64,000 bases of DNA, from IMG/VR virus record IMGVR_UViG_3300031787_010241, positions 1 through 64,000 of that record; one strand, 5' to 3'. How positions within the stretch are numbered: the first letter of the stretch is position 1; each line of letters opens with the position of its first letter. The translations under genes and the position numbers were made by a program. This DNA is from a virus. Positions 8,601-63,173 of the stretch are shown here, piece by piece. The notes below the pieces were generated by a model. The model made no database searches. It was given only the letters and a program-made list of their open reading frames with translations, and was not told the DNA's origin.

Positions 8601-9182
8601 AAATCCTTGGTAAAAACCACCGTATAATTCATGGTAGTTACCAATATACATGTCGTATTTATTAACAACTTCATAAGCAACACCACCCGAAAAACCTGAA
8701 AATCTTACATTAGGTGAATCAGTATAAGCAGTAACCTGAAACATCTTAAAACGTCTGTCATAGAATTGCCTATTGAATTTTAGTCCCGGGCCAAAAAGAC
8801 CATTGGTGTAATAGATAGTTTGACCTGTCATTGACGAAACTAAACCATTATCAATACCTGTTAGTCCAATATCACAAGATGAACCTTCGGGCTCACAATC
8901 TAAATCAACGTTATTGGGATTATAATAATTTTGTGATATAAAGATATTGTATGGGTTATATGTACCGTATTGTAACTGATAATCTTGTACTGTATTTGGG
9001 TCGTTAGTATCAAAATAAATTGGTAATTTATTACCGTAAGTTTGAGCAATTAAGTATGGGGAGAACACTACCTCCTGATTGAAACCCGTATTATCGGATG
9101 ATAACGATATATCAGTAGTACCTACCGCAAATTTTGGGTATGAATTGGGAGGTACGTACTGATTAATATTTTGGCTCGCCAT
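5673..9182 (-). CDS. Very large fibre/adhesin with LamG-like domains, Cys-rich insert and Thr/Pro tract
   Basis: 1169 residues. The N-terminal half looks like a structural domain that includes a LamG/concanavalin-like fold ([12 protein letters not shown] near 200-220; [12 protein letters not shown] and [17 protein letters not shown] further on). It is interrupted at about 279-396 by a Cys-rich insert with many C-x2-C pairs ([26 protein letters not shown]). A Thr/Pro tract at about 730-954 leads to a clear C-terminal LamG-like domain (about 957-1169: [29 protein letters not shown]). LamG domains commonly bind glycans or proteins, so this is a good candidate receptor-binding or adhesion protein (inference). 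Confidence 0.8.
6319..6992 (-). repeat. Thr/Pro/Val codon repeat tract of the LamG-containing fibre
   Basis: Low-complexity DNA encoding about 225 residues of [16 protein letters not shown] and similar units. It resembles the tract in the neighbouring fibre gene closely enough that recombination between the two is plausible. Confidence 0.8.
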
Positions 9183-44595: not shown

Positions 44596-46905
44596 TTAAT
44601 TAACAGAAATCTTCCTAATTTCAACTGTTCCATCAGAGTAATGAATGTGAATAACATTCAATCCTTTTTCGAGTATTGCCTCATCCAAAGAATTATATCT
44701 TAAAGGTTTTTCATATAGTTGACTAAATTGTCTAACTTCAACATAATCAACCTCACCACCACCAAGAACTCCATCATTGTTAACAGCCGTCGCAAGTCTT
44801 GTTACAATACAATCAACCTGATTGTTATTTAAATTACCATCGCCAGTCCCACCATTTACTGTGAGAATTCTCATTCTCATTGTATTAGTTGAACCTAGTG
44901 GTAGAGCACAACTTGTTGCACTAAAACAAACATTTGATGACATCCAAGATGCTGAAAATTGATTTGTTATAGTTCCACCTTGGGGTAATAAAATATATTG
45001 ACCCGGTAATAGTGGTCCTTGCCAAGATGTTGATGTAGGCCAAGTTAAAACAGGTGCGGTTTGTGTAATCCAATTTCTGTCCCAAGTAAAGGAAGTAATA
45101 GGAACTGAACCTGTGTTTGTAATTTTCCATTGGAATGACACCGCAACCTGTGTTGGTGAAATTGTAACACTAGATGTTGATGGTGAAGTAAGGGTTGCAG
45201 ATAAGTCGGCTCCTGAAATTGCTGGTTGACTTGATATAAAACTAGCCTGTCTTGTATTATCTGTAGATACGGTTTCTGAAATAGACCCCATATAATTAAC
45301 TCTACTAATAATATATCTTGTCCCTGTTATATTTCCAACAGTATAAATAATTGTTTCAACATCAGTTGCAACTCCACCACCAAGATTACCACTAGTTGTT
45401 CCGATTACAATGTCATCAGCATCACCCCAAGTTGTATTGGTTGATAGTCTATGTTGGGTCATTACATTAACCGATGGATATGTAGGGTTTTGAGTTGCAA
45501 TCGTCGCCGTTATAGTAATATTGTTACCAGCGATAACTGATGTTGGATTAACAGTTAAAGTGTTAATAACAAAATTATGAATTTGTGTAGGAGGTGGTGG
45601 AGGAGGTGGAATTACTCCACCAGGGTTTGGTGTGGCATTAATAGCGTCCTTCAAGTTAATTCTACCATATCCAAGTTCGTTACTTCTTGTTGAGAGTGGC
45701 CACGTAGGATTGTTGGAGTAAGTATATCCTCCTACTTTCTCGCATGTTTGAGCAAGTATCTGTAATACTTGGTCGTCAGTAAGTTCCCAATTTTTATAGA
45801 ATATAAATGCCGCTGCGGCGGCTGTTATCGGGCACGAAAATGATGTTCCACTAATACTACGATAATCACCAGGGTCGTAACCTGCAGCTCCCAATCTATC
45901 TGTAGTTCTAATACTTACACCAGGTGCTGAAATGTCACAAATTTGTCCGTAGTTTGAGAAAGAAGCTCTTACATCTGTTGAAGAAGTTGCTCCAATTCCC
46001 CAAACATTATTGTAATTTGCGGGATACTGAGCCGCGGTTCCTGAGTATTGATTACCTGATGATGCCATAACCACCATACCTTTACCACCTCTTGCAGTTG
46101 TTCTTGCAGCGTTAAAAGCCGCTTCAAGAGACGCCGAGTATGATGAACCACCATAGGACATCGCAATTGCAACACAAGTTGGGTTTGCCATTGCAGCATT
46201 TACTCCATTAATTTGAATAACGTCTGAAGTAGCAAAACTACCTCCATCATAAACTTGTGACATAATATTAACTGGCATTACTTTTACTTTGTTGTTACCA
46301 ACACTACTAACACCAATACTATTATTTGTTACTGCGGCAATTGTTCCTGAACAAGCTGTTCCGTGTTTATCAAAAGAATTCACATAGGGGATTGACGTTG
46401 TACTATTAACTGCGTTAAATGGGCTGTTAGTATTACCAACTAGGTCAGGAATAGTTAAATCCAATCCCCCGTCAAACATTGCAACACTAACAAATGGATT
46501 GTCGGTCGGAACTAAATCCCAAGCTTCGTCCGCATCAATATCCTTATCGGTAGATTGTTTAAGATGCCAACAAGATGTGAACTCGGCGTCGTTTGGAATA
46601 TAATCCAATTGCATCTGTCTTGCCTCGTCTTTGTAAAGATTTTGAACGAAACTTAAACTTTTGTTTTGATTAATAAATTCATCTTGGTTTACACCATTCG
46701 GAATCAGGACAACATACCATCCAAGTTGGTCAAATTCGACTACAACTTTTGTATCACCTTGATTAAAGTGATTCTTTGCTTGTGGTTCCATTCCTTTTTT
46801 CGGAACCACAATAATTTGTCTGTCAATATTTTTAGATAAGTCGTATTGACTATACCCGAAAATAAATGAGAAAACAAACAGTAATGATAAGATTACTTTT
46901 TTCAT
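44596..46905 (-). CDS. Secreted subtilisin-like serine protease (S8)
   Basis: 769 residues. Sec signal peptide MKKVILSLLFVFSFIFGYSQ, then a prodomain-like stretch to about 130. Catalytic triad: D145 in AMFDGGLD, H181 in DKHGTACSG and S355 in SGTSFSCP, with oxyanion N285 in ASSGN. A Pro-rich linker (PPPPPPP near 430) is followed by beta-sandwich, CARDB-like domains (about 440-700). The last 35 residues (KGLNVIHIHYSDGTVEIRKI) resemble a T9SS type A sorting domain of Bacteroidota. An exported protease is unusual in phage; it may digest surface proteins or aid lysis. Probably acquired from the host lineage. Confidence 0.9.
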   Translation of the reverse strand: MKKVILSLLFVFSFIFGYSQYDLSKNIDRQIIVVPKKGMEPQAKNHFNQGDTKVVVEFDQLGWYVVLIPNGVNQDEFINQNKSLSFVQNLYKDEARQMQLDYIPNDAEFTSCWHLKQSTDKDIDADEAWDLVPTDNPFVSVAMFDGGLDLTIPDLVGNTNSPFNAVNSTTSIPYVNSFDKHGTACSGTIAAVTNNSIGVSSVGNNKVKVMPVNIMSQVYDGGSFATSDVIQINGVNAAMANPTCVAIAMSYGGSSYSASLEAAFNAARTTARGGKGMVVMASSGNQYSGTAAQYPANYNNVWGIGATSSTDVRASFSNYGQICDISAPGVSIRTTDRLGAAGYDPGDYRSISGTSFSCPITAAAAAFIFYKNWELTDDQVLQILAQTCEKVGGYTYSNNPTWPLSTRSNELGYGRINLKDAINATPNPGGVIPPPPPPPTQIHNFVINTLTVNPTSVIAGNNITITATIATQNPTYPSVNVMTQHRLSTNTTWGDADDIVIGTTSGNLGGGVATDVETIIYTVGNITGTRYIISRVNYMGSISETVSTDNTRQASFISSQPAISGADLSATLTSPSTSSVTISPTQVAVSFQWKITNTGSVPITSFTWDRNWITQTAPVLTWPTSTSWQGPLLPGQYILLPQGGTITNQFSASWMSSNVCFSATSCALPLGSTNTMRMRILTVNGGTGDGNLNNNQVDCIVTRLATAVNNDGVLGGGEVDYVEVRQFSQLYEKPLRYNSLDEAILEKGLNVIHIHYSDGTVEIRKISVN

Positions 46906-48608: not shown

Positions 48609-50462
48609 TTATCTAAGTTCTTGTAAGTCAAATGTACGTACACCATCAACTGTGATACGTCCGTAGAAACGGTTATTAACCATTTTCTTCGCGTAACGTG
48701 TCATGATACCCTTGATAGGTGTAAAGTTGAATGGGTTGTACATAGTTGGAGTTAATTGAAGTGGTACATACGGTGCGTAAATGTAACCAGTATCAAGTAA
48801 CGATGTACCTTTATGACCAATCAATACTTGGTTTGATGGGAAGTATGGGTCACGATATACTTGGTAACGACCAGCAAGTGTACCCACTCTCTCAATACCC
48901 ATGTTGTATTGGTCTTGTTCAGGTGACGCATTTGAAACGTGGAAATATTCCAAGTCATCAAAGATAGCTGAAACTTCGGAAGAAACAACAATCCAGTTTG
49001 CTCCACCACGAAGTGTTGACTTGTGAATTTGAGCAGATAATTGGTTGATTGCTGTAATCAAAGTTTGGTTCCAGTCTTTTTGAGTGTAAGAAGTTGTATT
49101 AGCAACTCTTCTCCATCCGTTGTAATCCCAACGTAAATTCCAAGCCGCTCCTTTACGAAGGTCACGAAGAATTTCACGGTCAATTTCAGCCGCAACTTGT
49201 TCTGACAATAAAGCTGTCAATTCGGCTTCAGCGTCGATGTTGTGGAATGCCGCAACGTCTTGAGCAAGTTCTGGTGACCACTGAGCTCTCAACTTTCTTT
49301 CAGTCACAGAAACTGTTACTGACTCAAGGTCGAAAGAAACTTCACCGATTTTATCTTCGAATTCGAGTTCTTCATAACGTCTCCAAGCTACGTTAAATGC
49401 TGAACCTGAGAAAATGTTAGTGATAGTTGCACCTGTGTAACCATCGATAGTGTCACTACCACATGTTGGACATGTAGGACATGACAAATCAACTTCTAAA
49501 TAGATATAACCTGTCTGGTCACAAACTTTATCATAAGTACCACCACCACCATCGGTAGGCCAAGTAGTTGTTGTTGGAGTGTAGGTAGGACTAACAATAC
49601 CCTTACCATACTGTTGAGTTACAACTCTATACAAAAGTGGTCCTGTAGAAATCGCACATGGTGTTGTTGACGCGCTAATACCTGTACCAGTATAAACAAT
49701 CAAACTAGCCAAGAAAGTTTCAGTATCAATCTCATTACCATCAGGTGCTATTAATTTACCTACACCAGTGTTAGTGAAACCACCAACTCTGATAATAACT
49801 TTTCTTATGTTGTTACCGATGTAAACTGACTGAGCGGGTTCTAGTGTACCATTAGACCAAGCAACAACTGTAGCTGATGTGGTTACTGCCGACCAACGAC
49901 CTTTTGAATAGTCAAAAAGACCTGCTGGGTTCAATCCAGGTTCAGTGCCTTCATAGAATAAATCATAAAGGTTTTTAGCATAAGTACCGTTGTATGAACC
50001 ATTTGACAAAGTGTAACCAGAATTTGGGTCACCAGGGTAATTACCAGGTGAACCTACAGGTGCGTAGTGCTGACCTGAACTTGAGTCAAATGGTCCGGTT
50101 GAGGAACCACCAACACCATTGTTATAACCTTGAATCTTCGGTACGAAGTAGAACAATTTACCAATTGGTAAGTTCATAGCTTGTACAGATACAATGTCGT
50201 TAGCAAGTAACTTAGAGAATACACGTCTAACGATTGGGAATACAACAGTTTCAAATGAACCTGAAGAACCGTCAGAAGTTGCTTCGTTAATCAAATGTGA
50301 CGCTTGGTTTTCATATAACTGCGCAACATTTTCTTTTAGGTGGCCCTTAAGACCTTCGAGGAACCCTAATTTGTCCCATTTGTTGATAGTATCTTCTTTG
50401 ATAACTTTAAGGTGCTTAAGACCGATGTTACCAACAAGACCTGATTCTAATAATGCTCCCAT
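48609..50462 (-). CDS. Major capsid protein, T4 gp23-like
   Basis: 617 residues. The N-terminal part follows gp23: KLGFLEGLKGHLKENVAQLY, ENQASHLINEATSDG, then FETVVFPIVRRVFSKLLAND and MNLPIGKLFYFVPKIQG. I58-N59-E60|A61 fits the prohead-protease rule and is close to the gp23 cleavage point (after residue 65), giving a mature subunit of about 557 residues. The middle includes a Gly/Ser/Thr-rich insert with CPTCPTC (about 330) likely at the capsid surface. Function: hexamer-forming shell protein. Lies directly downstream of the core/scaffold gene; no TATTTAT lies just before it, so it is likely co-transcribed. Confidence 0.95.
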   Translation of the reverse strand: MGALLESGLVGNIGLKHLKVIKEDTINKWDKLGFLEGLKGHLKENVAQLYENQASHLINEATSDGSSGSFETVVFPIVRRVFSKLLANDIVSVQAMNLPIGKLFYFVPKIQGYNNGVGGSSTGPFDSSSGQHYAPVGSPGNYPGDPNSGYTLSNGSYNGTYAKNLYDLFYEGTEPGLNPAGLFDYSKGRWSAVTTSATVVAWSNGTLEPAQSVYIGNNIRKVIIRVGGFTNTGVGKLIAPDGNEIDTETFLASLIVYTGTGISASTTPCAISTGPLLYRVVTQQYGKGIVSPTYTPTTTTWPTDGGGGTYDKVCDQTGYIYLEVDLSCPTCPTCGSDTIDGYTGATITNIFSGSAFNVAWRRYEELEFEDKIGEVSFDLESVTVSVTERKLRAQWSPELAQDVAAFHNIDAEAELTALLSEQVAAEIDREILRDLRKGAAWNLRWDYNGWRRVANTTSYTQKDWNQTLITAINQLSAQIHKSTLRGGANWIVVSSEVSAIFDDLEYFHVSNASPEQDQYNMGIERVGTLAGRYQVYRDPYFPSNQVLIGHKGTSLLDTGYIYAPYVPLQLTPTMYNPFNFTPIKGIMTRYAKKMVNNRFYGRITVDGVRTFDLQELR

Positions 50463-50490
50463 TTTGTTTGGTTTTTTATTAATTTAAAGT

Positions 50491-52011
50491 TTATTTTAAT
50501 TTATTCATCAAATCTTTCATTCTCAGGAATTGAGGGTTTTCATATGTTTTTGACTCAATTAAGTTGATTGCTGAACCTGTTGATGGTGCCTTTTCGATTA
50601 CTTGACCGATTGACTCATTCATTGGTTGAGCAGAACTTCCTGACAACTCATCTTTGATTGATTTGTACAAATTCTTCGATTCTTTCAATGTTTCAACAGA
50701 ATCAAATCTTCTCAAGATGTTAATTTTCTCTTGTTTAGATGTTGAGTGTTCAGTAAATAAACGAGTTGCGTATGCCAAATTTGAATTAAACACGGCAACT
50801 TCATTTAATTTGTTTCTGAATACGTTCAACGCTTTTCTGTATTCTTCATTCTTTTCACGAAGAAGTTGTAACTCACTGCTATCCACACTTTCAAACTTCA
50901 AGTTTCTGTTAGGTGTGATTCCTTTTCTTAAACCACGTCCTTCTTTAGAACCATTTCCGTATGTACGTGCAGCTTCTTTTGTTTCCGCCTTCTTAACGCC
51001 TTTTGGTTTAATTTTAAATTCGCCGTCAAGATTTTCACCATTCTTGTCATAGGAGAAGCCTTTTTTAGCACTTCCTGTTCCCATAGTTTTGTTGGCGGTT
51101 TTCTTAACAACTTTAAACCCTTCGCCTTGATTCGGATTTTTACGATACTTGAATTTTGAAGCCTTACCCATGCCCATGCCTTTAGCCCTGGTGGATTTTT
51201 TACCTTCTTCCAAGTAACCTTCATTTTCTTGGTCATATGATTCATCCATGTCCTCTTCGATTTCTTCATCCATTTCGATTTCATAGACAATACCTTCAGA
51301 TTCCTCATCAGTATCATCCTCATCATCGTCAGATTCTTCATTCATGTCGATTTCATAGACGTAACCTTCTTCTTGTTCTTCATTACCTTCATCGAATATG
51401 TCATTAACGATGTCTTCAACACTTTTTTCAGATAGATATTCTTCTTCTTCCATAGGAATAACGTCGTCATCTTCCATCATTGTGTCATCCATCATTGTGT
51501 CATCCATCATAGCATCACCCATTTCTGAGTCGTCCGCCATGTCATACATGTCTTTTTCCATAGATGTGTAATCAGATTCTTCTCCTTCACCAACAATCAT
51601 GTATTCTTTGTCAGTTTCAGTATCTTTCACACTAATGTTACCGCTGTCATCTTTAGTAACAACGATATGGTCATCAGGACCCATTAATTGGAAAACACGT
51701 AAAACCTCCTCATCTGATTTGTCAGTTAAGTCGATAGGTTCGTCATCTTCGATGTTATCAGTGTCCATTTCCATACCCATATCCATTTCGTCTGAGTCCA
51801 TTTCGTCCTCATCTTCCATTTCGGGTTCTTCCATGTCCACTTCCATGTCAACCTCTTCTTCGCCTTGTTCGTTAAGAGATTCTTTTACTAATTCTTTGAT
51901 TTCTTCCTTCATAGTCGAAGCAAGTATTCCTTTTGCATTTTCCGCAACCGCTTCTTCCAAATTTTTCATTTGGAGGATTGCTTCTTCAACAATAGATTTT
52001 TCTTTTGCCAT
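50491..52011 (-). CDS. Prohead core/scaffold protein, T4 gp22-like
   Basis: 506 residues, long for gp22 but in its place between protease and capsid genes. N-terminal helix (SIVEEAILQMKNLEEAVAEN), then a very acidic Asp/Glu/Met region (about 50-260) with DDTMMDDTMM repeats, a basic Gly/Lys stretch (about 265-360) and a C-terminal coiled coil (LREKNEEYRKALNVFRNKLN, HSTSKQEKINILRRFDSVET). Many L/I-x-E tripeptides (for example SLNEQG) could be cut by the protease so that the core leaves the head. Acidic/basic blocks are typical of core proteins. Drives prohead assembly. Confidence 0.85.
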   Translation of the reverse strand: MAKEKSIVEEAILQMKNLEEAVAENAKGILASTMKEEIKELVKESLNEQGEEEVDMEVDMEEPEMEDEDEMDSDEMDMGMEMDTDNIEDDEPIDLTDKSDEEVLRVFQLMGPDDHIVVTKDDSGNISVKDTETDKEYMIVGEGEESDYTSMEKDMYDMADDSEMGDAMMDDTMMDDTMMEDDDVIPMEEEEYLSEKSVEDIVNDIFDEGNEEQEEGYVYEIDMNEESDDDEDDTDEESEGIVYEIEMDEEIEEDMDESYDQENEGYLEEGKKSTRAKGMGMGKASKFKYRKNPNQGEGFKVVKKTANKTMGTGSAKKGFSYDKNGENLDGEFKIKPKGVKKAETKEAARTYGNGSKEGRGLRKGITPNRNLKFESVDSSELQLLREKNEEYRKALNVFRNKLNEVAVFNSNLAYATRLFTEHSTSKQEKINILRRFDSVETLKESKNLYKSIKDELSGSSAQPMNESIGQVIEKAPSTGSAINLIESKTYENPQFLRMKDLMNKLK

Positions 52012-52032
52012 TCTTTGTTTTTATTTTTCTAT

Positions 52033-52039
52033 ATAAATA
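52033..52039 (-). promoter_or_regulatory. TATTTAT element before the core/capsid genes
   Basis: 21 bases upstream of the scaffold start at 52011; probably drives both scaffold and capsid genes. Confidence 0.55.
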
Positions 52040-52093
52040 TGTATCAAATCATAAAAATTTTTTATTATTCGTTTTGATACTAAATATTTTTTA

Positions 52094-53050
52094 TTATTTT
52101 TCTCCTGATTTTCCTAACTTTTGTTTTTCAAGCTCAATCATTTTTTCGATTTCCGCTTTTCTAAATTCTAGATTTTGTAATCTTCTTTCTCCGACTTTGA
52201 ATATATCGTCTTCGACAGGAGTGTTTCTATATGACTTAACTTTTGTTTGACCTTCAAAATTTATATTGCTTAACAGATACGGTTCGTCATACCTTGTTAT
52301 TTCAGTTGTTACTTTTCTAATTTTATTTTTCTTATTAGCGAATGCAACATATCTTTTTCTATCTAAATCAACGAATAAAAATACTTGTACATTTGATTCA
52401 GAATATTTTGTAGAGTCAAAACCCCTTGATGTTACTTCAAAAAAAGTATCACCATCTTTATCAACCAAACTTCTTATGTAGGTAAATGGTTTTACTTGTA
52501 CGTGAAATGTTTTACCACCCGCAGTTACCGCAATATCCATTCCCTTTCTAGTGTCTCTAATATCACCAGAACAAAATCTTACAATTTTGGCGTTCTCACC
52601 GAAAAATTCTTGTAATATTTGAATTGCATAATCTTCATTTTGATTTCCCCTCTCAATTGTGGTTTTATTCAATTCTACTAATTCATCAGTGATTGGACCC
52701 TTAAATAATCTTTCTGCGTTCAGAGTAATCCACTCCATGAATTTTTTAGGAGTTAATTCAGTATCAGGTTCATCCTCATGAAACAAGGACTCCATTTTTC
52801 GTCTTACTTTGGTATTGGTGTCAAATCTGTTAAGTATCGACCATTCATCTTTACCAGGTATATGCTGATAAACCCCAATGACCCCAAAATCGGTGGCACA
52901 ACCCTCATCAGGGTTTTCAATTTTACCCCAATTAGATGGGGAATAAACATCTTTCAATGTTTTCCTAATATGAGCGGCAATAGGGTCTGTTGGTCTTTTG
53001 AAATATTCTGATAGTATCTTATACTGACCCTCTGAAATTGTAATTTTCAT
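52094..53050 (-). CDS. PD-(D/E)XK nuclease-like protein in the head module
   Basis: 318 residues. After a helical domain, residues 130-190 follow a PD-(D/E)XK core: ERGNQNEDYAIQILQEFFGE (E139), then SGDIRDTRKGMDIAVTAGGK (D172) and FHVQVKPF (Q185-V-K187), i.e. D-x12-Q-x-K. The leader MKITISEGQYKILSEYF has I-S-E|G at 5-8 and L-S-E|Y at 13-16, both prohead-protease-like. A head-packaged nuclease delivered with the genome, or a DNA-end processing enzyme, are possibilities. No T4 head counterpart is known. Long C-terminal helix (EFRKAEIEKMIELEKQKLG). Confidence 0.72.
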   Translation of the reverse strand: MKITISEGQYKILSEYFKRPTDPIAAHIRKTLKDVYSPSNWGKIENPDEGCATDFGVIGVYQHIPGKDEWSILNRFDTNTKVRRKMESLFHEDEPDTELTPKKFMEWITLNAERLFKGPITDELVELNKTTIERGNQNEDYAIQILQEFFGENAKIVRFCSGDIRDTRKGMDIAVTAGGKTFHVQVKPFTYIRSLVDKDGDTFFEVTSRGFDSTKYSESNVQVFLFVDLDRKRYVAFANKKNKIRKVTTEITRYDEPYLLSNINFEGQTKVKSYRNTPVEDDIFKVGERRLQNLEFRKAEIEKMIELEKQKLGKSGEK

Positions 53051-53055
53051 ATCTG

Positions 53056-53062
53056 ATAAATA
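53056..53062 (-). promoter_or_regulatory. TATTTAT element within a small inverted repeat
   Basis: Only 5 bases before the nuclease-like start at 53050. It is inside CTGATAAATATATCAG (53053-53068), a perfect 6-base inverted repeat, which may be a regulator site. Confidence 0.35.
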
Positions 53063-53075
53063 TATCAGAATAAAA

Positions 53076-53099
53076 AAAAGGAGGGTTTCCCCTCCTTTT
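53076..53099 (-). terminator. Intrinsic terminator after the small DUF4494-like gene
   Basis: 10-bp stem (AAAAGGAGGG/CCCTCCTTTT) with a 4-base loop and T-run on the reverse strand, 22 bases past the stop at 53122. It separates protease and nuclease-like units. Confidence 0.87.
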
Positions 53100-53121
53100 A
53101 CAACTATTGATAATTTTTTGA

Positions 53122-53331
53122 TTATCCTATCACTTCATCAATTTTACTTTCTACAATAGCTGTTATTCTCCAGTCTTCCGAATAGTTCTCAAAAACCTTT
53201 GTCACTTTTGCTTCAACATCAGTCGGTGAATAACCTTTAACTAATTTTTCCTGTCTTAATTTTTTAATTTTACCTGTTTCGGAGTCAGGCATGTCTGTTG
53301 TAATTTTTGCTACAAAATATTTTTCGTCCAT
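53122..53331 (-). CDS. Small DUF4494-like protein
   Basis: 69 residues. KYFVAKITTDMPDSETGKIK, then KLVKGYSPTDVEAKVTKVF and a beta end (RITAIVESKIDEVIG). This matches the layout of the Bacteroidota family DUF4494 (a strand, a variable dGk loop, a Y-x-V-x-A-S-x-T-E-A-E-like helix and a final strand). Function of that family is not known. It lies 11 bases after the protease gene and could be its partner, or a host-derived small regulator. Confidence 0.6.
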   Translation of the reverse strand: MDEKYFVAKITTDMPDSETGKIKKLRQEKLVKGYSPTDVEAKVTKVFENYSEDWRITAIVESKIDEVIG

Positions 53332-53342
53332 TTTATTGAGTT

Positions 53343-54068
53343 TTAGTAACCCAAATAATCGTTCAATTTCTTCATTAAGTCAAGCGATTTGTCGGTTGGG
53401 CCACCAAATTCTCTTTCAGCTTTCATTTTTTTCTCCTCATCCAAGTTTTCTTCAAACTTAAATCTGTCATCAGGTTCAGTGAAAAGATAAGCACCAGGAG
53501 TGGATGGAGACCATACAAGGTCAAAACAAATCAACTCAAAGTCATCCTGTACTTCGTTTTGTTCCCCAATTTTTTTAAGCGACCCTACACCACGAGATGA
53601 TATACCAAGTGTAACACCTTGTCTTAAAAGATTTGCCGCTTGGTCTCCTTTGGTTGATACAATACCTCTCTCATGAAAACCTGGTGAAGTTAATAATTTT
53701 AATTTACCCATAAGAACAGGACCTTCCCACCATATATCACTAATTGAATGAGAAACTCTGTCCAAGTCAACAAGTGATGACTCAGGGTGATTAAGTTCGG
53801 ATAAAGCAATACCCTTGTTAATCATTTTCTTATAATTGTCGGCTTCTCTCTTTAATACTTTTTCAGGATATATTCTTCCGTTTCTGTTTGGGGTGTTAAA
53901 TTTCTGAAGTACTGCGTAGAATTCAAATGGTTTTGAATGGTCCAACATTCCTTTGGACTCATGTATCAAATCAACATTACGTTTTTCAGTTGGTGATAAG
54001 TATCCAGCATCGTATTCGATTAGAATGCCTTTGCCTGATTGTCCGGGTTTCAAAACTTCCATATTCAT
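53343..54068 (-). CDS. Prohead maturation protease, T4 gp21-like
   Basis: 241 residues. Fits the gp21 (S80) family: KFNTPNRNGRIYP (about 57-68), IALSELNHPESSLVDLDRVS with catalytic H94, and VTLGISSRGVGSLKK with the Ser near 157-158. Gp21 cleaves the core and shell proteins after L/I-x-E during prohead maturation and then digests itself. A second in-frame ATG lies 2 codons inside. Position beside the core and capsid genes is as in T4. Confidence 0.92.
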   Translation of the reverse strand: MNMEVLKPGQSGKGILIEYDAGYLSPTEKRNVDLIHESKGMLDHSKPFEFYAVLQKFNTPNRNGRIYPEKVLKREADNYKKMINKGIALSELNHPESSLVDLDRVSHSISDIWWEGPVLMGKLKLLTSPGFHERGIVSTKGDQAANLLRQGVTLGISSRGVGSLKKIGEQNEVQDDFELICFDLVWSPSTPGAYLFTEPDDRFKFEENLDEEKKMKAEREFGGPTDKSLDLMKKLNDYLGY

Positions 54069-54076
54069 TTTTTATA

Positions 54077-54083
54077 ATAAATA
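54077..54083 (-). promoter_or_regulatory. TATTTAT element before the prohead protease
   Basis: 8 bases before the start at 54068. Confidence 0.45.
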
Positions 54084-54092
54084 CTTTGTTTT

Positions 54093-54557
54093 TCAACTTT
54101 GTAGTATAGTTTCCTTTGGTTTGACGGTTTTACGTAAATAAAATTTGAAGTATTCGTTTTTTGTGAAGTGTATTGATATTATTTCCTTGGTTACTTTTTT
54201 CAATATATCCTTTAATTTTTTTGATTTAAAATCTAAATCTTTCTTTTTAATATAAAAATTTATCTCTAGATTTAAAAACGATTTTTTCTTTAGAGATAAT
54301 CCACTTGACCTTAAATCTAAATCCACAATAAAGTTTTCCTCAAAGACTAATCTATCTAATATTTCATGTACCGTATGTTTAATCGACCTTGTTAGATTTA
54401 ATACAACCCTTTGCCAGTTATCAGAATCAACAATTGGTTCTACCCAAGTTTGTATGTTTAAATATAAAGACTTAAATTCAACTGAATCTACCGTGCCATA
54501 AATCACCTTCGCATTTTTAAATCCTGCGATTGGTGAAGTTTTCCCTTTTTTCATCAA
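54093..54557 (-). CDS. Hypothetical protein of the head module
   Basis: 154 residues. Basic start (KKGKTSPIAGFKNAKVIYG), alpha/beta middle (SLYLNIQTWVEPIVDSDNWQ, TRSIKHTVHEILDRLVFEEN) and a Lys-rich beta end (KDLDFKSKKLKDILKKVTKE). No family recognised. It stands where T4 has small core genes (67, 68) but has no visible similarity to them. Divergent with the bS21 gene. Confidence 0.65.
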   Translation of the reverse strand: MMKKGKTSPIAGFKNAKVIYGTVDSVEFKSLYLNIQTWVEPIVDSDNWQRVVLNLTRSIKHTVHEILDRLVFEENFIVDLDLRSSGLSLKKKSFLNLEINFYIKKKDLDFKSKKLKDILKKVTKEIISIHFTKNEYFKFYLRKTVKPKETILQS

Positions 54558-54595
54558 CTTTTCATTTTACCGATGTTTATTTTTAAAAAAATAAG

Positions 54596-54603
54596 TATAT
54601 TTG
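54596..54603 (+). promoter_or_regulatory. TATATTTG, possible host -7 box before bS21
   Basis: Fits TAnnTTTG of Bacteroidota promoters, 45 bases before the ATG at 54649, but no TTTG lies at the correct distance upstream (only TTTA at 54576-54579 with a short spacing). Confidence 0.35.
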
Positions 54604-54636
54604 TATCGGTAGTCAAAAAAAATTCAATTTAAGCGT

Positions 54637-54643
54637 TATTTAT
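54637..54643 (+). promoter_or_regulatory. TATTTAT element before bS21
   Basis: 5 bases before the ATG at 54649. With no Shine-Dalgarno sequence between them, this element is the only leader signal close to the start codon. Confidence 0.35.
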
Positions 54644-54648
54644 TATAT

Positions 54649-54837
54649 ATGTTAATTGTCAAAGTAGATAAAAACGGTATTGAGAGAGCATTAAAGTTAC
54701 TCAAAAGTAAAGTGATTAAGACCCGACAGTCAAGTCAACTCGTCGAAAGAAAGGAGTATGAAAAGAAGTCGGTTAGAAAAAGAAAAATGTTGAAAAAGGC
54801 CAAGTATGTTCAGAAAATGAAAAACAAAGACTTTTAA
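54649..54837 (+). CDS. rpsU: Phage-encoded ribosomal protein bS21
   Basis: 62 residues, the length of bacterial bS21 (about 60-70). MLIVKVDKNGIERALKLLKS opens as in Bacteroidota bS21 (MLI-x-V-x-[ED]G-x-[IS]-[ED]RALK), followed by the basic helices KEYEKKSVRKRKMLKKAKYV and QKMKNKDF. bS21 sits on the 30S platform near the mRNA exit and the 3' end of 16S rRNA and affects initiation. It is the only forward gene in the head module and overlaps the reverse gene at 54834 by 4 bases. The host-type gene in flavobacteria has a strong Shine-Dalgarno sequence; here none is present, so the phage copy should escape that autoregulation (inference). Confidence 0.93.
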   Translation: MLIVKVDKNGIERALKLLKSKVIKTRQSSQLVERKEYEKKSVRKRKMLKKAKYVQKMKNKDF

Positions 54838-55550
54838 AGATTCTCGTTAAGATTCTTTAATTTGAAATAAGTAAATTTGTCGTATTTTTCTGAAACCACC
54901 TTTTCCAAAGTTTCATTAATCCTACTTTTAGTTTCTGTGTCAGCATTCTCTTTAATTGTCTCCAATTTTTTGGTGACACTTTCTTTTAGTTGCTCAAAAT
55001 TACCCTCTAATTCTTTATCGTCAGTCTTAAGAAAATCAACTAATTCTTTCTTTTCAGACTCATTCAAACTTTCAATAAAATTAGAAATTGTTTTATTAGC
55101 AACATTTACCATAGTACTTAATGGTAAATTAACAACTTCTTTTTTATCTGCAGGTTTTTTCTTTAACGACTCTTTAATCAATTTTTTGCTAGATAATCTA
55201 GATTCAATTGTGAGAACATCATTAGAGAATAGATTGTCGATAGTAGAGTAATTGTTATCTGACTTTACATTAACCACCCAATTAGATAAATCAACAAGGG
55301 TTGAATTTTTAATCTTATTGATTGTATTTTCATATATCGTTATACATTCGTAGATATAATCATCCACAATAGATTCATTCAAACCTTTATTAGAATTCAA
55401 TTCATCATATAGATAAAAAAGTTTTGAAATGTTTTTATTTTCCAATACATTCTTTTTGAAATTTTTCATTTCAGTCTTGAATGTTCCGTTAGAATAAGAT
55501 TCTAACATCAATTTTTCTATCTTTGATTTTAATAAACCGAACTTTACCAT
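54834..55550 (-). CDS. Helical head-module protein, probable core component
   Basis: 238 residues, almost wholly helical, Lys/Glu/Asn/Ser-rich, with KFGLLKSKIEKLMLESYSNG at the start, and several L/I-x-E tripeptides further on (INETLEK, LNESEKK). Located between portal and protease, where T4 has core genes 67 and 68, and its composition suits a core protein. No direct similarity to them is visible. Own promoter-like palindrome upstream. Confidence 0.65.
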   Translation of the reverse strand: MVKFGLLKSKIEKLMLESYSNGTFKTEMKNFKKNVLENKNISKLFYLYDELNSNKGLNESIVDDYIYECITIYENTINKIKNSTLVDLSNWVVNVKSDNNYSTIDNLFSNDVLTIESRLSSKKLIKESLKKKPADKKEVVNLPLSTMVNVANKTISNFIESLNESEKKELVDFLKTDDKELEGNFEQLKESVTKKLETIKENADTETKSRINETLEKVVSEKYDKFTYFKLKNLNENL

Positions 55551-55562
55551 GTCTTTTTATTT

Positions 55563-55569
55563 ATAAATA
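55563..55569 (-). promoter_or_regulatory. TATTTAT element, in palindrome TATTTATAAATA
   Basis: 12 bases before the start at 55550. On the same strand the companion TATAAATA (55558-55565) leaves 7 bases to the ATG. Confidence 0.55.
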
Positions 55570-57369
55570 TCAATCCCTCAAGAGTTTTGACAATTCAGAC
55601 TCAATTTCCCCCAAAGAATTTTTAGCTCTTGATAAATCGATAAAACTATCTGATTCAGTTAGACTATCATTCTCTAGTAAAATTTTCAAATTATCCCTCT
55701 TAAACGACTCGGGAATTGGCGGTTCTTCACCTCCTGCCGGTGGAGATGGTGGGGGAGCTCCTCCCATTTCTTCACCTCCTGGTGGTGGAGGTGGTGCTCC
55801 TCCAGCCGCAGTACCTCCAGTGATAGAACCATATAATTTATCGATATTATCAAATATACCTGTATGTGTAATGATTGTTGCGGTGTTAGTCAATTCTGCA
55901 CCAACTGCCTTTTCAATTCTTTGTTGTTGTAAATCAAGTTTAATTTCTTCATCAGAAAAACCAAGTACGTGTTTTTTAGCCCAAGAAACTGACACAGGTG
56001 CAATACCTTCGATGGCGGTAACCGCGTCTTTATATAATAAAACTTTTTCTTTCCAAACGTCAATTTTAAGTAAATCTGCTTGGGTTGACGGATTGGTTAA
56101 CCCTAATGTAAAGTTTGATAACTCATCTTCAAATCCCATCAAGAACAAGTGAATGATTGCGATTTTATTTAATTCGGCAATCATACATTTTTGAATTCTA
56201 TTGATTGTGCGAGCAAAACGAATATCCTGTAATGATAAATTTTTACCTTCACCAACAACTTCTTCAAACCCTAAAAATGCTTTTGGTACGCGAAGTGCGG
56301 TCAAAAGTTTCTTTTGGATATATTCAATATCCGCAATTTCTGACAGGTTTTGAGCACCAGGTAATGTATCAATTGGGTTTGGAGCTGCCGCGTCTCTAAC
56401 AGGGATAAAGTAATCTTGGTCAACGGCCATTTGATTAAATCTCATATCAACATTACCTGTTTTATTGTCAACAACTTGGTCACGTTTGAATTTGTTGGCG
56501 ACACGTTGTACATACGCCTCCACATCTTTATCGTCCATATTACCAACAAACACTTTGAATACCCTTCTTTCAGGTGCTCTCGATGTTCTATAAATCAACA
56601 TAGCATCTTCAGATAACAATAATTGTTTCCAAATACGACGAGCCTTTTCCAACATAGATGTACCGTATGGCAGCTTTCTGTCATCACCCATCAATCTAAA
56701 GTGAGCAATTTCCCATGAATTAAATTCCATGTCCTTTGCTTTCCACTTAAATCTTAACCCTCTATTTTCTTTTGGTTCTTCTACATTCTGTGATTTTGCC
56801 GGCATACCACGTTCCAAACGCTCAATCTCAATGTTCGGTAACTGCATACACCCAACAACACCCTTTTCAGGGTCTAATTTCAAATACACAAAGTTATCAC
56901 CATACTTACAAGTGTTTCTAGTCCACATAGGTAAGTTGGTGTTAATATCTAAAACATTGTTAAATAAATCGGTTAGAATACCCTTAATTCTTTTTGATTC
57001 AGAATAAATCTGAAGCATATAACCATTCTGGTCAACGGTTGTTGACTCTTCACCGTAGATATCCAAAGCCGCTGAAATCTCGGGAGTATATTCCATAGAT
57101 TCATAATCATAAAACGAAGCCAATCTTGTTGGTTCGTAATAAACCGCTTGGGTATAAAGATTACTTTCTATTTTAGTCCATTGATTTGCTAAATAAAAAG
57201 TTTGTTGAGCTTGTAACAGCTCTTTATCGTATTCTTGTTTTGAAGTTGTGCGAAGTAACTCCTTCTTATCGAATTTGTAGGTTGGATAATCCTGGTTGAG
57301 TAACGCATTTGGACCAAATGCTCTCGTTAACCTTTGCCAAACCGTAATTTGATTATTGTTATTCTCCAT
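55570..57369 (-). CDS. Portal vertex protein, T4 gp20-like
   Basis: 599 residues, near the size of gp20 (524) with extra C-terminal length. Gp20-type features: YDYESMEYTPEISAALDIYG (about 87-106), GDNFVYLKLDPEKGVVGCMQ, IAHFRLMGDDRKLPYGTSML, LEKARRIWKQLLLSEDAMLI and RRVFKVFVGNM; then IEYIQKKLLTALRVPKAFLG. The C-terminal 60 residues contain a Pro/Gly stretch (GGAPPPPPGGEEMGGAPPP) and acidic helix. Forms the dodecameric ring through which DNA enters, nucleates prohead assembly, and binds terminase. Confidence 0.95.
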   Translation of the reverse strand: MENNNNQITVWQRLTRAFGPNALLNQDYPTYKFDKKELLRTTSKQEYDKELLQAQQTFYLANQWTKIESNLYTQAVYYEPTRLASFYDYESMEYTPEISAALDIYGEESTTVDQNGYMLQIYSESKRIKGILTDLFNNVLDINTNLPMWTRNTCKYGDNFVYLKLDPEKGVVGCMQLPNIEIERLERGMPAKSQNVEEPKENRGLRFKWKAKDMEFNSWEIAHFRLMGDDRKLPYGTSMLEKARRIWKQLLLSEDAMLIYRTSRAPERRVFKVFVGNMDDKDVEAYVQRVANKFKRDQVVDNKTGNVDMRFNQMAVDQDYFIPVRDAAAPNPIDTLPGAQNLSEIADIEYIQKKLLTALRVPKAFLGFEEVVGEGKNLSLQDIRFARTINRIQKCMIAELNKIAIIHLFLMGFEDELSNFTLGLTNPSTQADLLKIDVWKEKVLLYKDAVTAIEGIAPVSVSWAKKHVLGFSDEEIKLDLQQQRIEKAVGAELTNTATIITHTGIFDNIDKLYGSITGGTAAGGAPPPPPGGEEMGGAPPPSPPAGGEEPPIPESFKRDNLKILLENDSLTESDSFIDLSRAKNSLGEIESELSKLLRD

Positions 57370-57427
57370 AGGGTAATTTTAATCACCACAAATAATAACT
57401 AAATAGATATTATTTTGTTGGTTTTAT

Positions 57428-57434
57428 ATAAATA
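57428..57434 (-). promoter_or_regulatory. TATTTAT element, distant, before the portal gene
   Basis: 58 bases before the portal start, directly abutting the terminase stop at 57435; may be the promoter of a portal transcript with a long leader. Confidence 0.35.
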
Positions 57435-59195
57435 TTATCTACCTCCAAATAACCAACCGTATTTCATATAATCATCTTTGGTTATATTATTACCGTTAAA
57501 TTGATTGGTTCTATCTGTATAATTTGGTATTACCGGATTAAATGCGATTTGAGCACTTACATTATCGTTATTACTGACAGACCAAGATTCTAACATCGCT
57601 TTTGTCTGTTCTGTAACTTTTGTTAATTGTGAGAATGAAGATTCCGCAACATAACAAGCCATAGCGATTGACATGATTAAGTCATCGTGGTGACCTTTTT
57701 GGTGGTCAGGTCGTCCGTTTATATAAACAAACGTATTCATCTCGTTAAACAAACGATTACTGTAAATCTTAAATTCGTGTCTCATTGCTTCCTCAAAAGC
57801 CGCAATAATCTGTACTCGTTTATTGTTAAAATTTATTCCCGGTATTTTTTCAGCAGCCTTTGGGTCCCACTTCCATTTGTTCGCGGTATCAACACCATCA
57901 ACATATAAGTCCTTATATCCTATTTCTTGCATTTTTCTTGCGGTAGAAACGCCCATTCCACCAGTGATATCAATCACAACAAAACAAGAATACATATTTG
58001 CCCATTTGTAACAAACATCGGCCATGGTGTCAGGAGGAAGTTTTCCAACAAACTCCGCAACTTGTTCTCTAGTATCAAAATCAATTATTTGAAACGAACT
58101 AAAATCTTCACTATCACCCCTACTAACATCGACACCCATCACATACTTATGACCAATAACAGGTTCTTTCCAAATCCAAAGGGCGTTACCCATCATTTTA
58201 TTTTGTGGTTCTCGTATATAATTTTCCCTAACTTTTTGTAACAAATTTGAGTCAAATACGTTATCACCTGACCCCAAAAAGTTACATTCCAATTCCTGTG
58301 AAACCTTACGTTTGTCGTACTTAAGTTTCTTAACCATCCCCTCAAACCAAGCAGAACATGGCTTATAACCTGTGTCCATAATTGATTTTAACTCAACGTA
58401 ATCTCGTTTTTCAAATGGTATATTTTCCCAACTTATAATATCATCAGGATTATATTCTTCTTTATTTAATAGATAATGAATAATGTCTTTTGTCTTAACA
58501 AGATATAAATCTTTTGTATATCTTGGGTCTCTAAACCAATACATTTCAGAAATTTTGAAATCGTTCATATTCCTTAATGCTTGGTCGTAGATTTCATAAT
58601 AGATTGGGTCATATCCGTTAGGAGTTGATACAACTATTACTTTACCACCCGTAGACAACGACGCCATACAAGCCGCCCAAAAATCACTGTCAGCGTCTAT
58701 AAATGCCGCCTCGTCAAATATTAATATCGTTGGGGTAAATCCACGTAATGCGTCTTTAGATGTTGCCACGGCTTTAACCTCACAACCATTATTTAATTTA
58801 TAATGTTTCTGTGAGTCTTTTTCTGTTGAAAAATCAATCCCAACCCAAGACGGCCATTGTGTCATAAATGCCCTAATTTTATTTGCCATTTCTTGAGATG
58901 TATCAAGTTTGTTGGCGATTATAAGAATTTTTTCAGGCTTAATTTTTTTAGCGAACGCCAGTTTTTTTGATATCCAAGCGGCGGTCACCGTAGATACCCC
59001 CGCCTGTCTATATTTTAACGCAATGTTTTCATTAAAGTTCTCATAATCCTCAAGTAAGGATATCTGGTCAGGGAATAATTCCAAAGGAACGTATTTTGAA
59101 ACTGTATTGTCATAGGTTTGTAGATATGTACGAAGGGCATATGAAGTATCCTTCATACACCTAACGTATTCAATCATCACTTGTTCTTTTGTCAT
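57435..59195 (-). CDS. Terminase large subunit, T4 gp17-like
   Basis: 586 residues. ATPase: Walker A-like KYRQAGVSTV (61-70, in the SRQ-x-G-[KS]-T position), Walker B ILIFDEAAF (157-165), coupling motif VVSTPNG (188-194). Nuclease: GVDVSRGDSEDFSS (D356), VIDITGGMG (D409) and HHDDLIMSIAMA (D504, D505). It packages and cuts concatemeric DNA as part of the motor docked at the portal. The Walker A Lys of standard P-loops is at a different place here (V67-S68-T69), a variation seen in gp17 relatives. Gene lies next to the portal. Confidence 0.95.
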   Translation of the reverse strand: MTKEQVMIEYVRCMKDTSYALRTYLQTYDNTVSKYVPLELFPDQISLLEDYENFNENIALKYRQAGVSTVTAAWISKKLAFAKKIKPEKILIIANKLDTSQEMANKIRAFMTQWPSWVGIDFSTEKDSQKHYKLNNGCEVKAVATSKDALRGFTPTILIFDEAAFIDADSDFWAACMASLSTGGKVIVVSTPNGYDPIYYEIYDQALRNMNDFKISEMYWFRDPRYTKDLYLVKTKDIIHYLLNKEEYNPDDIISWENIPFEKRDYVELKSIMDTGYKPCSAWFEGMVKKLKYDKRKVSQELECNFLGSGDNVFDSNLLQKVRENYIREPQNKMMGNALWIWKEPVIGHKYVMGVDVSRGDSEDFSSFQIIDFDTREQVAEFVGKLPPDTMADVCYKWANMYSCFVVIDITGGMGVSTARKMQEIGYKDLYVDGVDTANKWKWDPKAAEKIPGINFNNKRVQIIAAFEEAMRHEFKIYSNRLFNEMNTFVYINGRPDHQKGHHDDLIMSIAMACYVAESSFSQLTKVTEQTKAMLESWSVSNNDNVSAQIAFNPVIPNYTDRTNQFNGNNITKDDYMKYGWLFGGR

Positions 59196-61535: not shown

Positions 61536-61935
61536 AAACCACTTTTTTTTCGAACTCTAATACTAAATCTCGTTCGTAAAGTTTATTTTTAACCGTTTCT
61601 TCTTTTTCTCCGAAACGAAAAACTAATCTTTTTTTCGTATCGAAATTAACTTCTTCACTATCGTTCTCCCAAGATAGGGCAATAACTCCGTCAATTGCGT
61701 CTATCATAGAAAAAAAATCGGAGTTCTGAATAACTGACATACTAATTGTATCGTTTTTTAGAACTCCTACCTTTTTTATAAATTCCAAGTCCGGTGGTGA
61801 TGGGTAACCGTTTGACGGTTTTGATTCCCAAGAGTCACCCCAAACTCCGTCTAAACTATCCGAGAAAATAAACTCATAAATGTTGTCTCCCTTATAGTTT
61901 GGACCTAACTCATTTACATAAATCAAATAACTCAT
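61525..61935 (-). CDS. Hypothetical protein of the head module
   Basis: 136 residues with a beta-rich look: SYLIYVNELGPNYKGDNIYE, then IFSDSLDGVWGDSWESKPSN and ISMSVIQNSDFFSMIDAIDG. Acidic and aromatic; possibly a small virion protein or chaperone. Its start overlaps the next gene upstream by 4 bases, and its end overlaps the 319-residue gene by 11 bases. No family recognised. Confidence 0.68.
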   Translation of the reverse strand: MSYLIYVNELGPNYKGDNIYEFIFSDSLDGVWGDSWESKPSNGYPSPPDLEFIKKVGVLKNDTISMSVIQNSDFFSMIDAIDGVIALSWENDSEEVNFDTKKRLVFRFGEKEETVKNKLYERDLVLEFEKKVVYEH

Positions 61936-63173
61936 AGAATTTCACCTTTTGGGGTTACTCTAACTTTTGATTCATTTATTTCAAAAACTAAATCTTTTTT
62001 CTTTGTTCTGCCAAGTAATTTAGCGTCAGAAAATTTGTTAATCAATTTACGTGAGATAACTTCTTGTTCCACATTTTCACTCAACTGATTAATTTTCCAA
62101 ATCATTTCTTTTTTTCTATCTTTCTTTTGTTCAGTGATTACTTTTTCAGTTTCACTTACATTGAAATATTTTTTCAGGATTTGGTCAACTTTCGACTCAC
62201 TAAACAAACCTTCAATCATGTCCTCAACCCCAAACGAATGTTTGTCATCAAGACCTTTGATTTTAGCCATTCTTGGTTCTTCAGGAGCTTCTGATTCATA
62301 TTCATCAAACATCTCCATCATTTCCGCAGGTATTTCTTCAGCCCCCATTTCATCCGCAGGCATTTCTTCATCACCCATATCACCCATATCTTCCATTCCC
62401 ATCTCATCACCTGCCATTTCTTCACCTTCGAATTTACCCATGATTTCATCTCTGTCTTCTTCATCCAATAAATTCAAATCAAATGCTGATAAAACAGAAT
62501 TAATTACATACTTAATGTCTTTTGATGACATTGGGTTTTCCTCGTCAGCCGCAAGTGTTCTAATTTTTTGAGCCAACTTACCTGTTAATTTCTGAATGGT
62601 TTTGAAAGTTACAATCTCTTCATCTTGTTCATCACCCATTTCAGTCTCCGCATCCATTTCAGGTTCCATTGGTTCCTCTGGCATTTCAGGAGCTGGTTCT
62701 TCAGCCGGTACTTCCGCAGGCGCCGGAGCAGGTGCCGGAGCAGGTGCCGGTGCGGGAGCCGCGGTGGGAGGAGCTTGTTCCATTTTCAGGAAATATTTTG
62801 TTTTATCCTTCTTCTCATCACCTTCATTGAACAATGAAACATTTTTTTCGTTACCCACCAAACTATTAACTTCTTTGGTGATTAAGTTCAATCTCTTGAA
62901 TGCTTGCGAGTATGAAGAATAATATTTTCTATTTTTCATTGGTTCAATATAATCCATTTCAGACTCATTAAGTCCTTTAACGATTACATAACCATTCTTC
63001 TCCTTATCAATTCGGTAAGTATGTCCGTCAGGTAAAACTTTTTTGTACTCAACAGAAGCATCTTCATTGATTGGATTTGGTATGTTTTCTTTGTATCTAG
63101 CAATCTCAATCATACGATTGATTTTGTCCATACCCTGAAGTTTTTCACTTCCAATAGGCTTTAATTTTCCCAT
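61932..63173 (-). CDS. Acidic core-like head protein with Ala/Pro repeat
   Basis: 413 residues. N-terminal region (KLQGMDKINRMIEIARYKEN) ends PNPINEDAS with I35-N36-E37|D38, a protease-like site. Then an ordered basic part, an Ala-Pro repeat (APAPAPAPAPAPAP near 140), a Met/Glu/Asp-rich region (about 155-310) and a helical basic C-terminus (KVDQILKKYFNVSE, RKEMIWKINQLSENVEQEVI). The acidic repeats resemble core/scaffold proteins. First gene of the leftward head operon with its own TATTTAT. Not matched to a T4 gene. Confidence 0.68.
   Translation of the reverse strand: MGKLKPIGSEKLQGMDKINRMIEIARYKENIPNPINEDASVEYKKVLPDGHTYRIDKEKNGYVIVKGLNESEMDYIEPMKNRKYYSSYSQAFKRLNLITKEVNSLVGNEKNVSLFNEGDEKKDKTKYFLKMEQAPPTAAPAPAPAPAPAPAPAEVPAEEPAPEMPEEPMEPEMDAETEMGDEQDEEIVTFKTIQKLTGKLAQKIRTLAADEENPMSSKDIKYVINSVLSAFDLNLLDEEDRDEIMGKFEGEEMAGDEMGMEDMGDMGDEEMPADEMGAEEIPAEMMEMFDEYESEAPEEPRMAKIKGLDDKHSFGVEDMIEGLFSESKVDQILKKYFNVSETEKVITEQKKDRKKEMIWKINQLSENVEQEVISRKLINKFSDAKLLGRTKKKDLVFEINESKVRVTPKGEIL

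What the first reader, a model, noticed from the sequence alone, without database searches (positions are those of the whole stretch)
54649..54837. Phage-encoded bS21 placed antisense inside the head module, with no Shine-Dalgarno sequence
The 62-residue product matches Bacteroidota bS21 in length, start and basic helices. It is the only forward gene between terminase, portal, protease, scaffold and capsid. Published work on freshwater Bacteroidota phages (Chen, Banfield and colleagues) describes exactly this placement and proposes that phage bS21 enters host ribosomes late and favours phage messages. In flavobacteria, bS21 helps hide the anti-Shine-Dalgarno, and host rpsU uses a strong Shine-Dalgarno for feedback. 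The phage gene has none, so it should be free of that control. The missing Shine-Dalgarno is seen; the escape is inference.
Basis: partly seen in the sequence, partly recalled or inferred. Interest (0 to 1): 0.85.

Follow-up and report, generated by a model that had tools for sequence, protein, structure and literature searches.

The report
Phage ribosomal protein bS21 gene
A large phage, probably of flavobacteria, carries its own copy of the small ribosomal protein bS21, a known kind of phage gene; unlike the bacterial gene it lacks the strong ribosome-binding signal through which bacteria limit bS21, so the phage copy probably escapes that control.

Summary
Window 54649-54837 (+) encodes a 62-residue bS21 (PF01165, 33.7 bits, cut-off 27), the only forward gene called between terminase and capsid, without a Shine-Dalgarno (SD). 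Placement and the "late ribosome substitution" idea are published (Chen 2022, PMC9723584): a new member of a known kind. Added here: (1) 0 of 61 distinct phage bS21 genes reach -7 kcal/mol, against 80 of 80 Flavobacterium-like rpsU at -19 or stronger. (2) SD absence is ordinary for this phage: 1 of 209 genes reaches -7, so SD cannot separate phage from host messages. (3) bS21 overlaps its convergent neighbour tail-to-tail in 59 of 59 testable loci, 54 by exactly 4 nt, with no terminator found; the published transcript evidence, whose methods section states no strandedness, could partly be antisense read-through. (4) Promoter-like boxes stand on bS21's own strand; the stronger is host-sigma-like, so early expression is not excluded. 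Best reading: a working bS21 that enters host 30S subunits, is made outside host autoregulation, and should lower host bS21 synthesis through the host's own feedback. Incorporation, feedback and timing are inferred; preference for phage messages is untested.

The parts
54649..54837 (+). bS21 (rpsU-like) gene, 62 aa; Tyr53 aligns with F. johnsoniae Tyr54
   Evidence: Y, H or F at this column in 61 of 61 distinct phage variants
54627..54646 (+). stretch where an SD would lie; no pairing with the 16S tail (-0.7 kcal/mol)
   Evidence: 0 of 61 relatives at or below -7, 80 of 80 Flavobacterium-like rpsU at or below -19
54595..54605 (+). promoter-like box GTATATTTGTA (holds TATATTTG, of the TAnnTTTG type recalled as the -7 box of the Bacteroidota primary sigma factor)
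   Evidence: score 10.7; TAnnTTTG 20-75 nt upstream in 27 of 61 variants; TAnnTTTG as such is not enriched in the window, 105 sites against 102.7 expected
54593..54617 (.). conserved bipartite element ARGT-N14-RGTCAAA in the divergent promoter region; direction of action unknown
   Evidence: 36 of 61 variants with fixed spacing; 29 distinct aligned, chosen by this very pattern
54634..54644 (+). weak match to the phage-wide ATATTTAT motif, ending 4 nt before ATG
   Evidence: score 4.6, shuffle p 0.20 here, stronger at the same place in some relatives; a box in the last 16 nt in 33 of 61 variants
54834..54837 (.). TTAA shared by the stop codons of bS21 (+) and the convergent gene (-)
   Evidence: overlap of exactly 4 nt in 54 of 59 loci, 6-18 nt in the other 5; no terminator-like site in 54300-55600
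54834..55550 (-). convergent neighbour gR, 238 aa, predicted all-helical; no family match for this protein
   Evidence: found in 60 of 61 variants; no Pfam or PHROG match at 0.001; model pLDDT 84.9, pTM 0.54
54093..54554 (-). divergent neighbour gL, 153 aa, alpha/beta fold; no family match for this protein
   Evidence: found in 61 of 61 variants; model pLDDT 90.7, pTM 0.84; no PDB match at E<=0.001
53343..54068 (-). prohead protease (Peptidase_S77)
55570..57369 (-). T4-type portal protein (Gp20)
57435..59195 (-). large terminase
48609..50462 (-). major capsid protein (Gp23)

Best explanation
This is a functional phage bS21. It is transcribed on its own strand from promoter elements in the 94-nt gap before it, and translated, like nearly all genes of this phage, without an SD, so ribosomes that already hold bS21 and hide their anti-SD can make it. 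Its product joins host 30S subunits at the bS21 site and keeps the Tyr54-type contact that hides the anti-SD. Host rpsU is translated best by ribosomes that lack bS21, so phage bS21 filling those vacancies should also turn host bS21 synthesis down, replacing host by phage bS21 without a dedicated inhibitor. Shown here: gene, family, conserved residues, purifying selection, SD contrast, conserved locus. From the literature: the rpsU feedback in F. johnsoniae, and incorporation of another phage's bS21 into E. coli ribosomes. Inferred: incorporation of this protein, the feedback step, own-strand transcription and its timing. Untested: any preference for phage messages.
For: PF01165 over cut-off. 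Aromatic residue at the Tyr54 column in 61 of 61 (56 Y, 3 H, 2 F); dN/dS median 0.27, 0 of the 170 pairs with dS 0.1-1.2 at or above 1. SD energies: host rpsU 80 of 80 at or below -19, mean -21.2; phage 0 of 61 at or below -7, mean -1.3, as in mock regions (mean -1.2). Neighbours kept in 60-61 of 61. Own-strand promoter-like boxes. Literature: bS21-lacking ribosomes initiate faster on rpsU (PMC9976891: abstract, one section, passages); pelagiphage bS21 enters E. coli 70S (PMC6375957, passages).
Against: The host is not known. In the phylum-wide sample 8 of 13 usable host loci had an rpsU SD of -7 or stronger (17 of the 30 fetched were dropped), so the feedback need not exist in every possible host; the 80 hosts were picked as the best matches to one Flavobacterium bS21. 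SD absence is shared by nearly all phage genes. E. coli ribosomes with tagged pelagiphage bS21 made about 5% of normal product, so incorporation may poison rather than replace. The phage loop (I23, R/K26, Q27 against D24, G27, T28 in 80 of 80 of those hosts) might change function. TTG at -33 is found in only 17 of 80 host rpsU promoters, so my promoter typing is weak.
Confidence: 0.52

Rival explanations
1. Message selection as proposed by Chen et al.: phage bS21 enters host ribosomes late and its changed N-terminal half makes them prefer phage messages.
For: Phage bS21 differs from Flavobacterium-like bS21 at invariant positions around residues 20-29, the region Chen also found divergent; published co-expression with structural genes.
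Against: SD cannot be the discriminator, both sides are SD-poor. The host genes sampled are neighbours of rpsU, many of them orthologues. No strandedness is stated for the expression data and the locus allows antisense reads. The stronger box before bS21 here is host-sigma-like.
Confidence: 0.18
2. Host shut-off: phage bS21 enters ribosomes and lowers overall or host translation.
For: E. coli ribosomes purified with tagged pelagiphage bS21 had about 5% activity, tagged E. coli bS21 about 75% (PMC6375957, passages).
Against: Phage messages would suffer too unless they differ; the authors say species mismatch is possible. The contact residue linked to anti-SD hiding is conserved.
Confidence: 0.12
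3. Simple top-up: phage bS21 keeps ribosomes complete late in infection when host mRNA is gone; no specificity and no feedback role.
For: Conserved bS21 core and purifying selection; needs no special property.
Against: I23, Q27 and a basic residue at 26 are kept in all 61 variants, more than a plain substitute would seem to need.
Confidence: 0.13
4. A non-ribosomal role, for instance a basic protein packaged in the head (Chen et al. mention packaging).
For: Fixed position inside the head module.
Against: Opposite strand to the head genes; ribosome-contact residue aromatic in 61 of 61.
Confidence: 0.05

Closest known systems
bS21-encoding freshwater Bacteroidota phages of Chen et al. 2022 (PMC9723584)
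   Same: bS21 on the reverse strand between two hypothetical genes within the terminase, portal, protease and capsid region; aromatic residue at position 54; record GC 33.1%, within their 31.0-33.7%; the contig of locus L007, identical over 10,186 bases, is 322,372 bases, within their 293-331 kb.
   Different: Not shown to be one of their genomes; no TerL tree was built. Added here: SD comparison, tail-to-tail overlap, promoter-like boxes.
Host rpsU of Flavobacterium (autoregulated bS21 gene, McNutt et al. 2023, PMC9976891)
   Same: Same protein family; a TAnnTTTG box upstream in 80 of 80 hosts, in this phage gene and in 27 of 61 phage variants.
   Different: Host SD -19 to -21.5 kcal/mol in 80 of 80; phage none, 0 of 61 at -7. 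Loop residues differ.
Pelagiphage HTVC008M bS21 (Mizuno et al. 2019, PMC6375957)
   Same: Phage-encoded bS21 of a myovirus.
   Different: Its host is Pelagibacter, a proteobacterium; that anti-SD hiding is a Bacteroidota trait is taken from McNutt et al., not tested here.

Membership tests
bS21 (PF01165) | profile score over curated cut-off | tested here: met
   33.7 bits against 27
bS21 (PF01165) | Bacteroidia-type aromatic residue stacking on A1534 (Tyr54) | tested here: met
   Tyr53 aligned to Tyr54; Y, H or F in 61 of 61; the stacking itself not tested
bS21 (PF01165) | bound in the 30S subunit | not testable with these tools
   needs ribosome proteomics
Chen 2022 bS21 phage group | bS21 antisense between conserved hypothetical genes in the head module | tested here: met
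Chen 2022 bS21 phage group | genome of 293-331 kb | tested here: inconclusive
   record of 165,622 bases, often a fragment in this class; contig with an identical 10,186-base locus is 322,372 bases
Chen 2022 bS21 phage group | TerL phylogeny in clades a-e | not tested
   no tree built
Autoregulated rpsU of Bacteroidota | extended SD, below -13 kcal/mol | tested here: not met
   -0.7 here; 0 of 61 relatives even at -7

The most novel reading that the evidence does not exclude
The phage uses the host's own bS21 feedback as the off-switch. An SD-less phage bS21 fills bS21-vacant ribosomes; this hides their anti-SD and silences host rpsU, typically the one strong-SD gene of Flavobacteriales (McNutt et al.). 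The ribosome pool drifts to phage bS21 while the phage's own supply is immune. The sense-antisense overlap with the head operon may tune the dose.
Probability: 0.3. Interest if true: 0.75.

Novelty: new member of a known kind. Interest (0 to 1): 0.45.

Why it matters
McNutt et al. call bS21 by far the most common phage-encoded ribosomal protein, and Mizuno et al. say its effect during infection remains to be shown. A host rpsU with a strong SD against a phage copy without one gives a clean, testable handle: does phage bS21 escape, and trip, the host's bS21 feedback? The tail-to-tail overlap also means that the published evidence for late expression should be repeated strand-specifically.

Tried and rejected
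Subtilase 44596-46905 as the protease that McNutt et al. speculated might target host bS21: found in 1 of 8 bS21-phage records searched, the contig of L007; some of the other records are short and may be fragments. Dropped.

gL as a ribosome factor: confident model, no PDB match at E<=0.001, one viral match at E<=0.001, uncharacterised. Relatives of gL and gR gave only scattered weak family matches (best for gL: PHROG 'tail protein' in 5 of 44, E 1.7e-4). gR's model was not searched against structures. Whether gL or gR is Chen's 'bS21_CN' could not be decided: in Flavobacterium phage immuto no bS21 is annotated and three pairwise comparisons (gR with one gene, gL with two) gave no match.

Leaderless bS21 mRNA: the ATATTTAT motif often ends 4-6 nt before ATG, but no transcript start is known and the box is weak here (p 0.20). 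Not claimed.

ARGT-N14-RGTCAAA as bS21's own promoter: read backwards it is also a TTGACT-17-TATTTT match for gL, in a scan that found 9 sites against 6.6 expected. Direction left open.

G27 as a residue of all bacterial bS21: rejected, L249 of the phylum-wide sample has K there.

Searches without result: tblastn of the phage bS21 and of gL in the phage collection, Rfam, PHROGs for bS21, tRNAs in the window, first genome-contig scan, three paper searches without a relevant new paper.

Dropped rows: L077 (38 nt upstream) from the 61-variant set; 2 of 61 variants without a measurable gR end; 17 of 30 phylum-wide host loci without ATG where my rule expects it; genes under 80 aa in the SD count.

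Full report
OBSERVATION. The ORF at 54649-54837 (+) encodes 62 residues and matches PF01165 above its cut-off (33.7 bits); it is the only such match in the 165,622-base virus record that holds the window. Closest solved proteins are bS21 chains of 9i5v and 7jil. On the minus strand around it lie terminase, T4-type portal, prohead protease and Gp23-type capsid. Gene calls from 48609 to 59195 are otherwise all minus. Locus L007 is identical to the window over 10,186 bases and lies in a contig of 322,372 bases, so the window's record is likely a fragment.

KNOWN BACKGROUND. Chen et al. 2022 (PMC9723584; abstract, discussion, first part of the results, sections 13, 14 and 32, passages) describe this placement and the late-substitution idea. 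McNutt et al. 2023 (PMC9976891; abstract, section 32, passages) show that F. johnsoniae rpsU is autoregulated through an extended SD read by bS21-lacking ribosomes, and speculate on phage bS21 exchange. Mizuno et al. 2019 (PMC6375957; passages) show a pelagiphage bS21 in E. coli ribosomes, which then made about 5% of normal product. No SD analysis of phage bS21 genes showed up in the listings of my paper searches or in what I read; most listed papers were not opened and papers outside the library were not searched.

SD TEST. Two scans of viral contigs gave 123 loci (each shows only its best 80 of more); with the window 124, of which 61 distinct by protein plus 60 nt upstream, the window being one of them with L002 as its twin. 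Duplex energy with the Flavobacterium 16S tail: phage bS21 mean -1.3, 0 of 61 at or below -7, like mock regions (mean -1.2). Host rpsU: 80 of 80 at or below -19, mean -21.2. Those 80 are the best matches to one Flavobacterium bS21; 72 of 80 titles say Flavobacterium or Flavobacteriaceae. Against a special meaning: SD is scarce in the whole phage, 1 of 209 genes of 80 aa or more at -7 against 11 of 209 mock regions (Fisher p 0.006). With ORFs of 120 aa or more: phage 0 of 159, host genes near rpsU 5 of 252, mocks 8 and 11. The same table shows phage starts richer in A just upstream (at -3 52% against 33%), a possible difference between phage and host messages. In a phylum-wide sample of 118 genomes, 30 loci were fetched, 13 usable, 8 of 13 with an rpsU SD of -7 or stronger. 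Of 22 phage records found with the host bS21 I read 5: one, from a 735-kb phage, has an SD (-12.1, its mock -6.4), four do not reach -7.

PROTEIN. The Tyr54 column is Y in 56, H in 3, F in 2 of 61. I23 and Q27 are in 61 of 61 and 26 is R (50) or K (11), where the 80 Flavobacterium-like hosts have D24, T28 and G27; one other host has K at the G27 place (L249). Chen et al. report divergence in the same region. dN/dS has median 0.27, 0 of 170 pairs with dS 0.1-1.2 at or above 1.

LOCUS. gL is found opposite to bS21 in 61 of 61 variants, gR in 60, protease in 60, portal in 56, terminase in 33, within the fetched flanks, many of which end early. bS21 and gR overlap at their 3' ends in 59 of 59 measurable loci, by exactly 4 nt in 54; no terminator-like site in 54300-55600 (expected 0.2). 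Leftward transcription from gR to gL would run through bS21 in antisense. Chen et al. report that bS21 and an opposite-strand neighbour may be transcribed together, from mapping whose methods section states no strandedness. Antisense reads are a fair alternative; this is inference. They also say that the region was not transcribed as one operon, which speaks against long read-through.

PROMOTERS. ATATTTAT stands in 52 of the 70-nt regions before 239 genes, against 3.6 expected. A motif model trained on these genes without bS21 scores above 7 in 62% of 128 gapped genes and in 8% of shuffles (trained on the same genes, so flattering). ATATTTAT sites rarely have TTG near -33 (8 of 47), TAnnTTTG sites more often (15 of 27; Fisher p 0.001), which suggests a phage class and a host-sigma class; but host rpsU promoters themselves have it in 17 of 80, and TAnnTTTG is not enriched in the window as a whole (105 against 102.7), though TATATTTG is before genes (15 against 1.8). 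bS21 has GTATATTTGTA at 54595-54605, which fits TAnnTTTG and scores 10.7 on the phage motif, and a weak box next to ATG (score 4.6, p 0.20). GTTTAT stands in the gap in 60 of 61 variants against 10% of shuffles; TAnnTTTG in 27 of 61; a near-ATG box in 33 of 61. The gap is a divergent promoter region for gL too, so not each conserved element need belong to bS21. Whether bS21 is early, late or both cannot be told.

MECHANISM. The best reading is a bS21 that works in host ribosomes and is made outside the host's SD-based autoregulation; by filling bS21-vacant ribosomes it should also turn host rpsU down. Incorporation, feedback and timing are inferred. Since phage and host messages mostly lack SDs, bS21 exchange cannot favour phage messages through SD; another basis is open. 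In checking I moved message selection from 0.15 to 0.18 and the main reading from 0.55 to 0.52, because of the A-richness.

VERDICT. Real, conserved, and already known as a kind; the SD contrast and the overlap make the open question testable.

Noticed in passing
whole record; e.g. before window 53343-54068 (-), 57435-59195 (-), 61932-63173 (-): A motif ATATTTAT stands before many genes (52 against 3.6 expected), its end often 4-6 or 14-18 nt before the start codon; likely a phage promoter, and some messages may be leaderless.
   Followed up: partly
window 44596-46905 (-): 769-aa subtilase next to the head module; found in 1 of 8 bS21-phage records searched.
   Followed up: partly
window 54093-54554 (-): gL, found in 61 of 61 bS21 variants, has a confident alpha/beta model without a significant PDB match; one match to an uncharacterised protein of Myoviridae sp. 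ctPuP5.
   Followed up: partly
L209:4096-5076 (-) (record 88096-89076): One of two further places in the record with ARGT-N14-RGTCAAA, and the one that stands just before a gene start, in the same orientation as at bS21; 326 aa, no family.
   Followed up: no
L215:2001-2201: bS21 gene of a 735-kb uncultured phage does carry an SD (-12.1 kcal/mol), unlike the head-module bS21 genes.
   Followed up: no
window 5673-9182 (-): 1169-aa protein with a C-terminal laminin-G/concanavalin-like domain, possibly a receptor-binding protein.
   Followed up: no
L208 and L212: Five tRNA genes outside the window (2 Met, Leu, Arg, Glu), none in the window.
   Followed up: no
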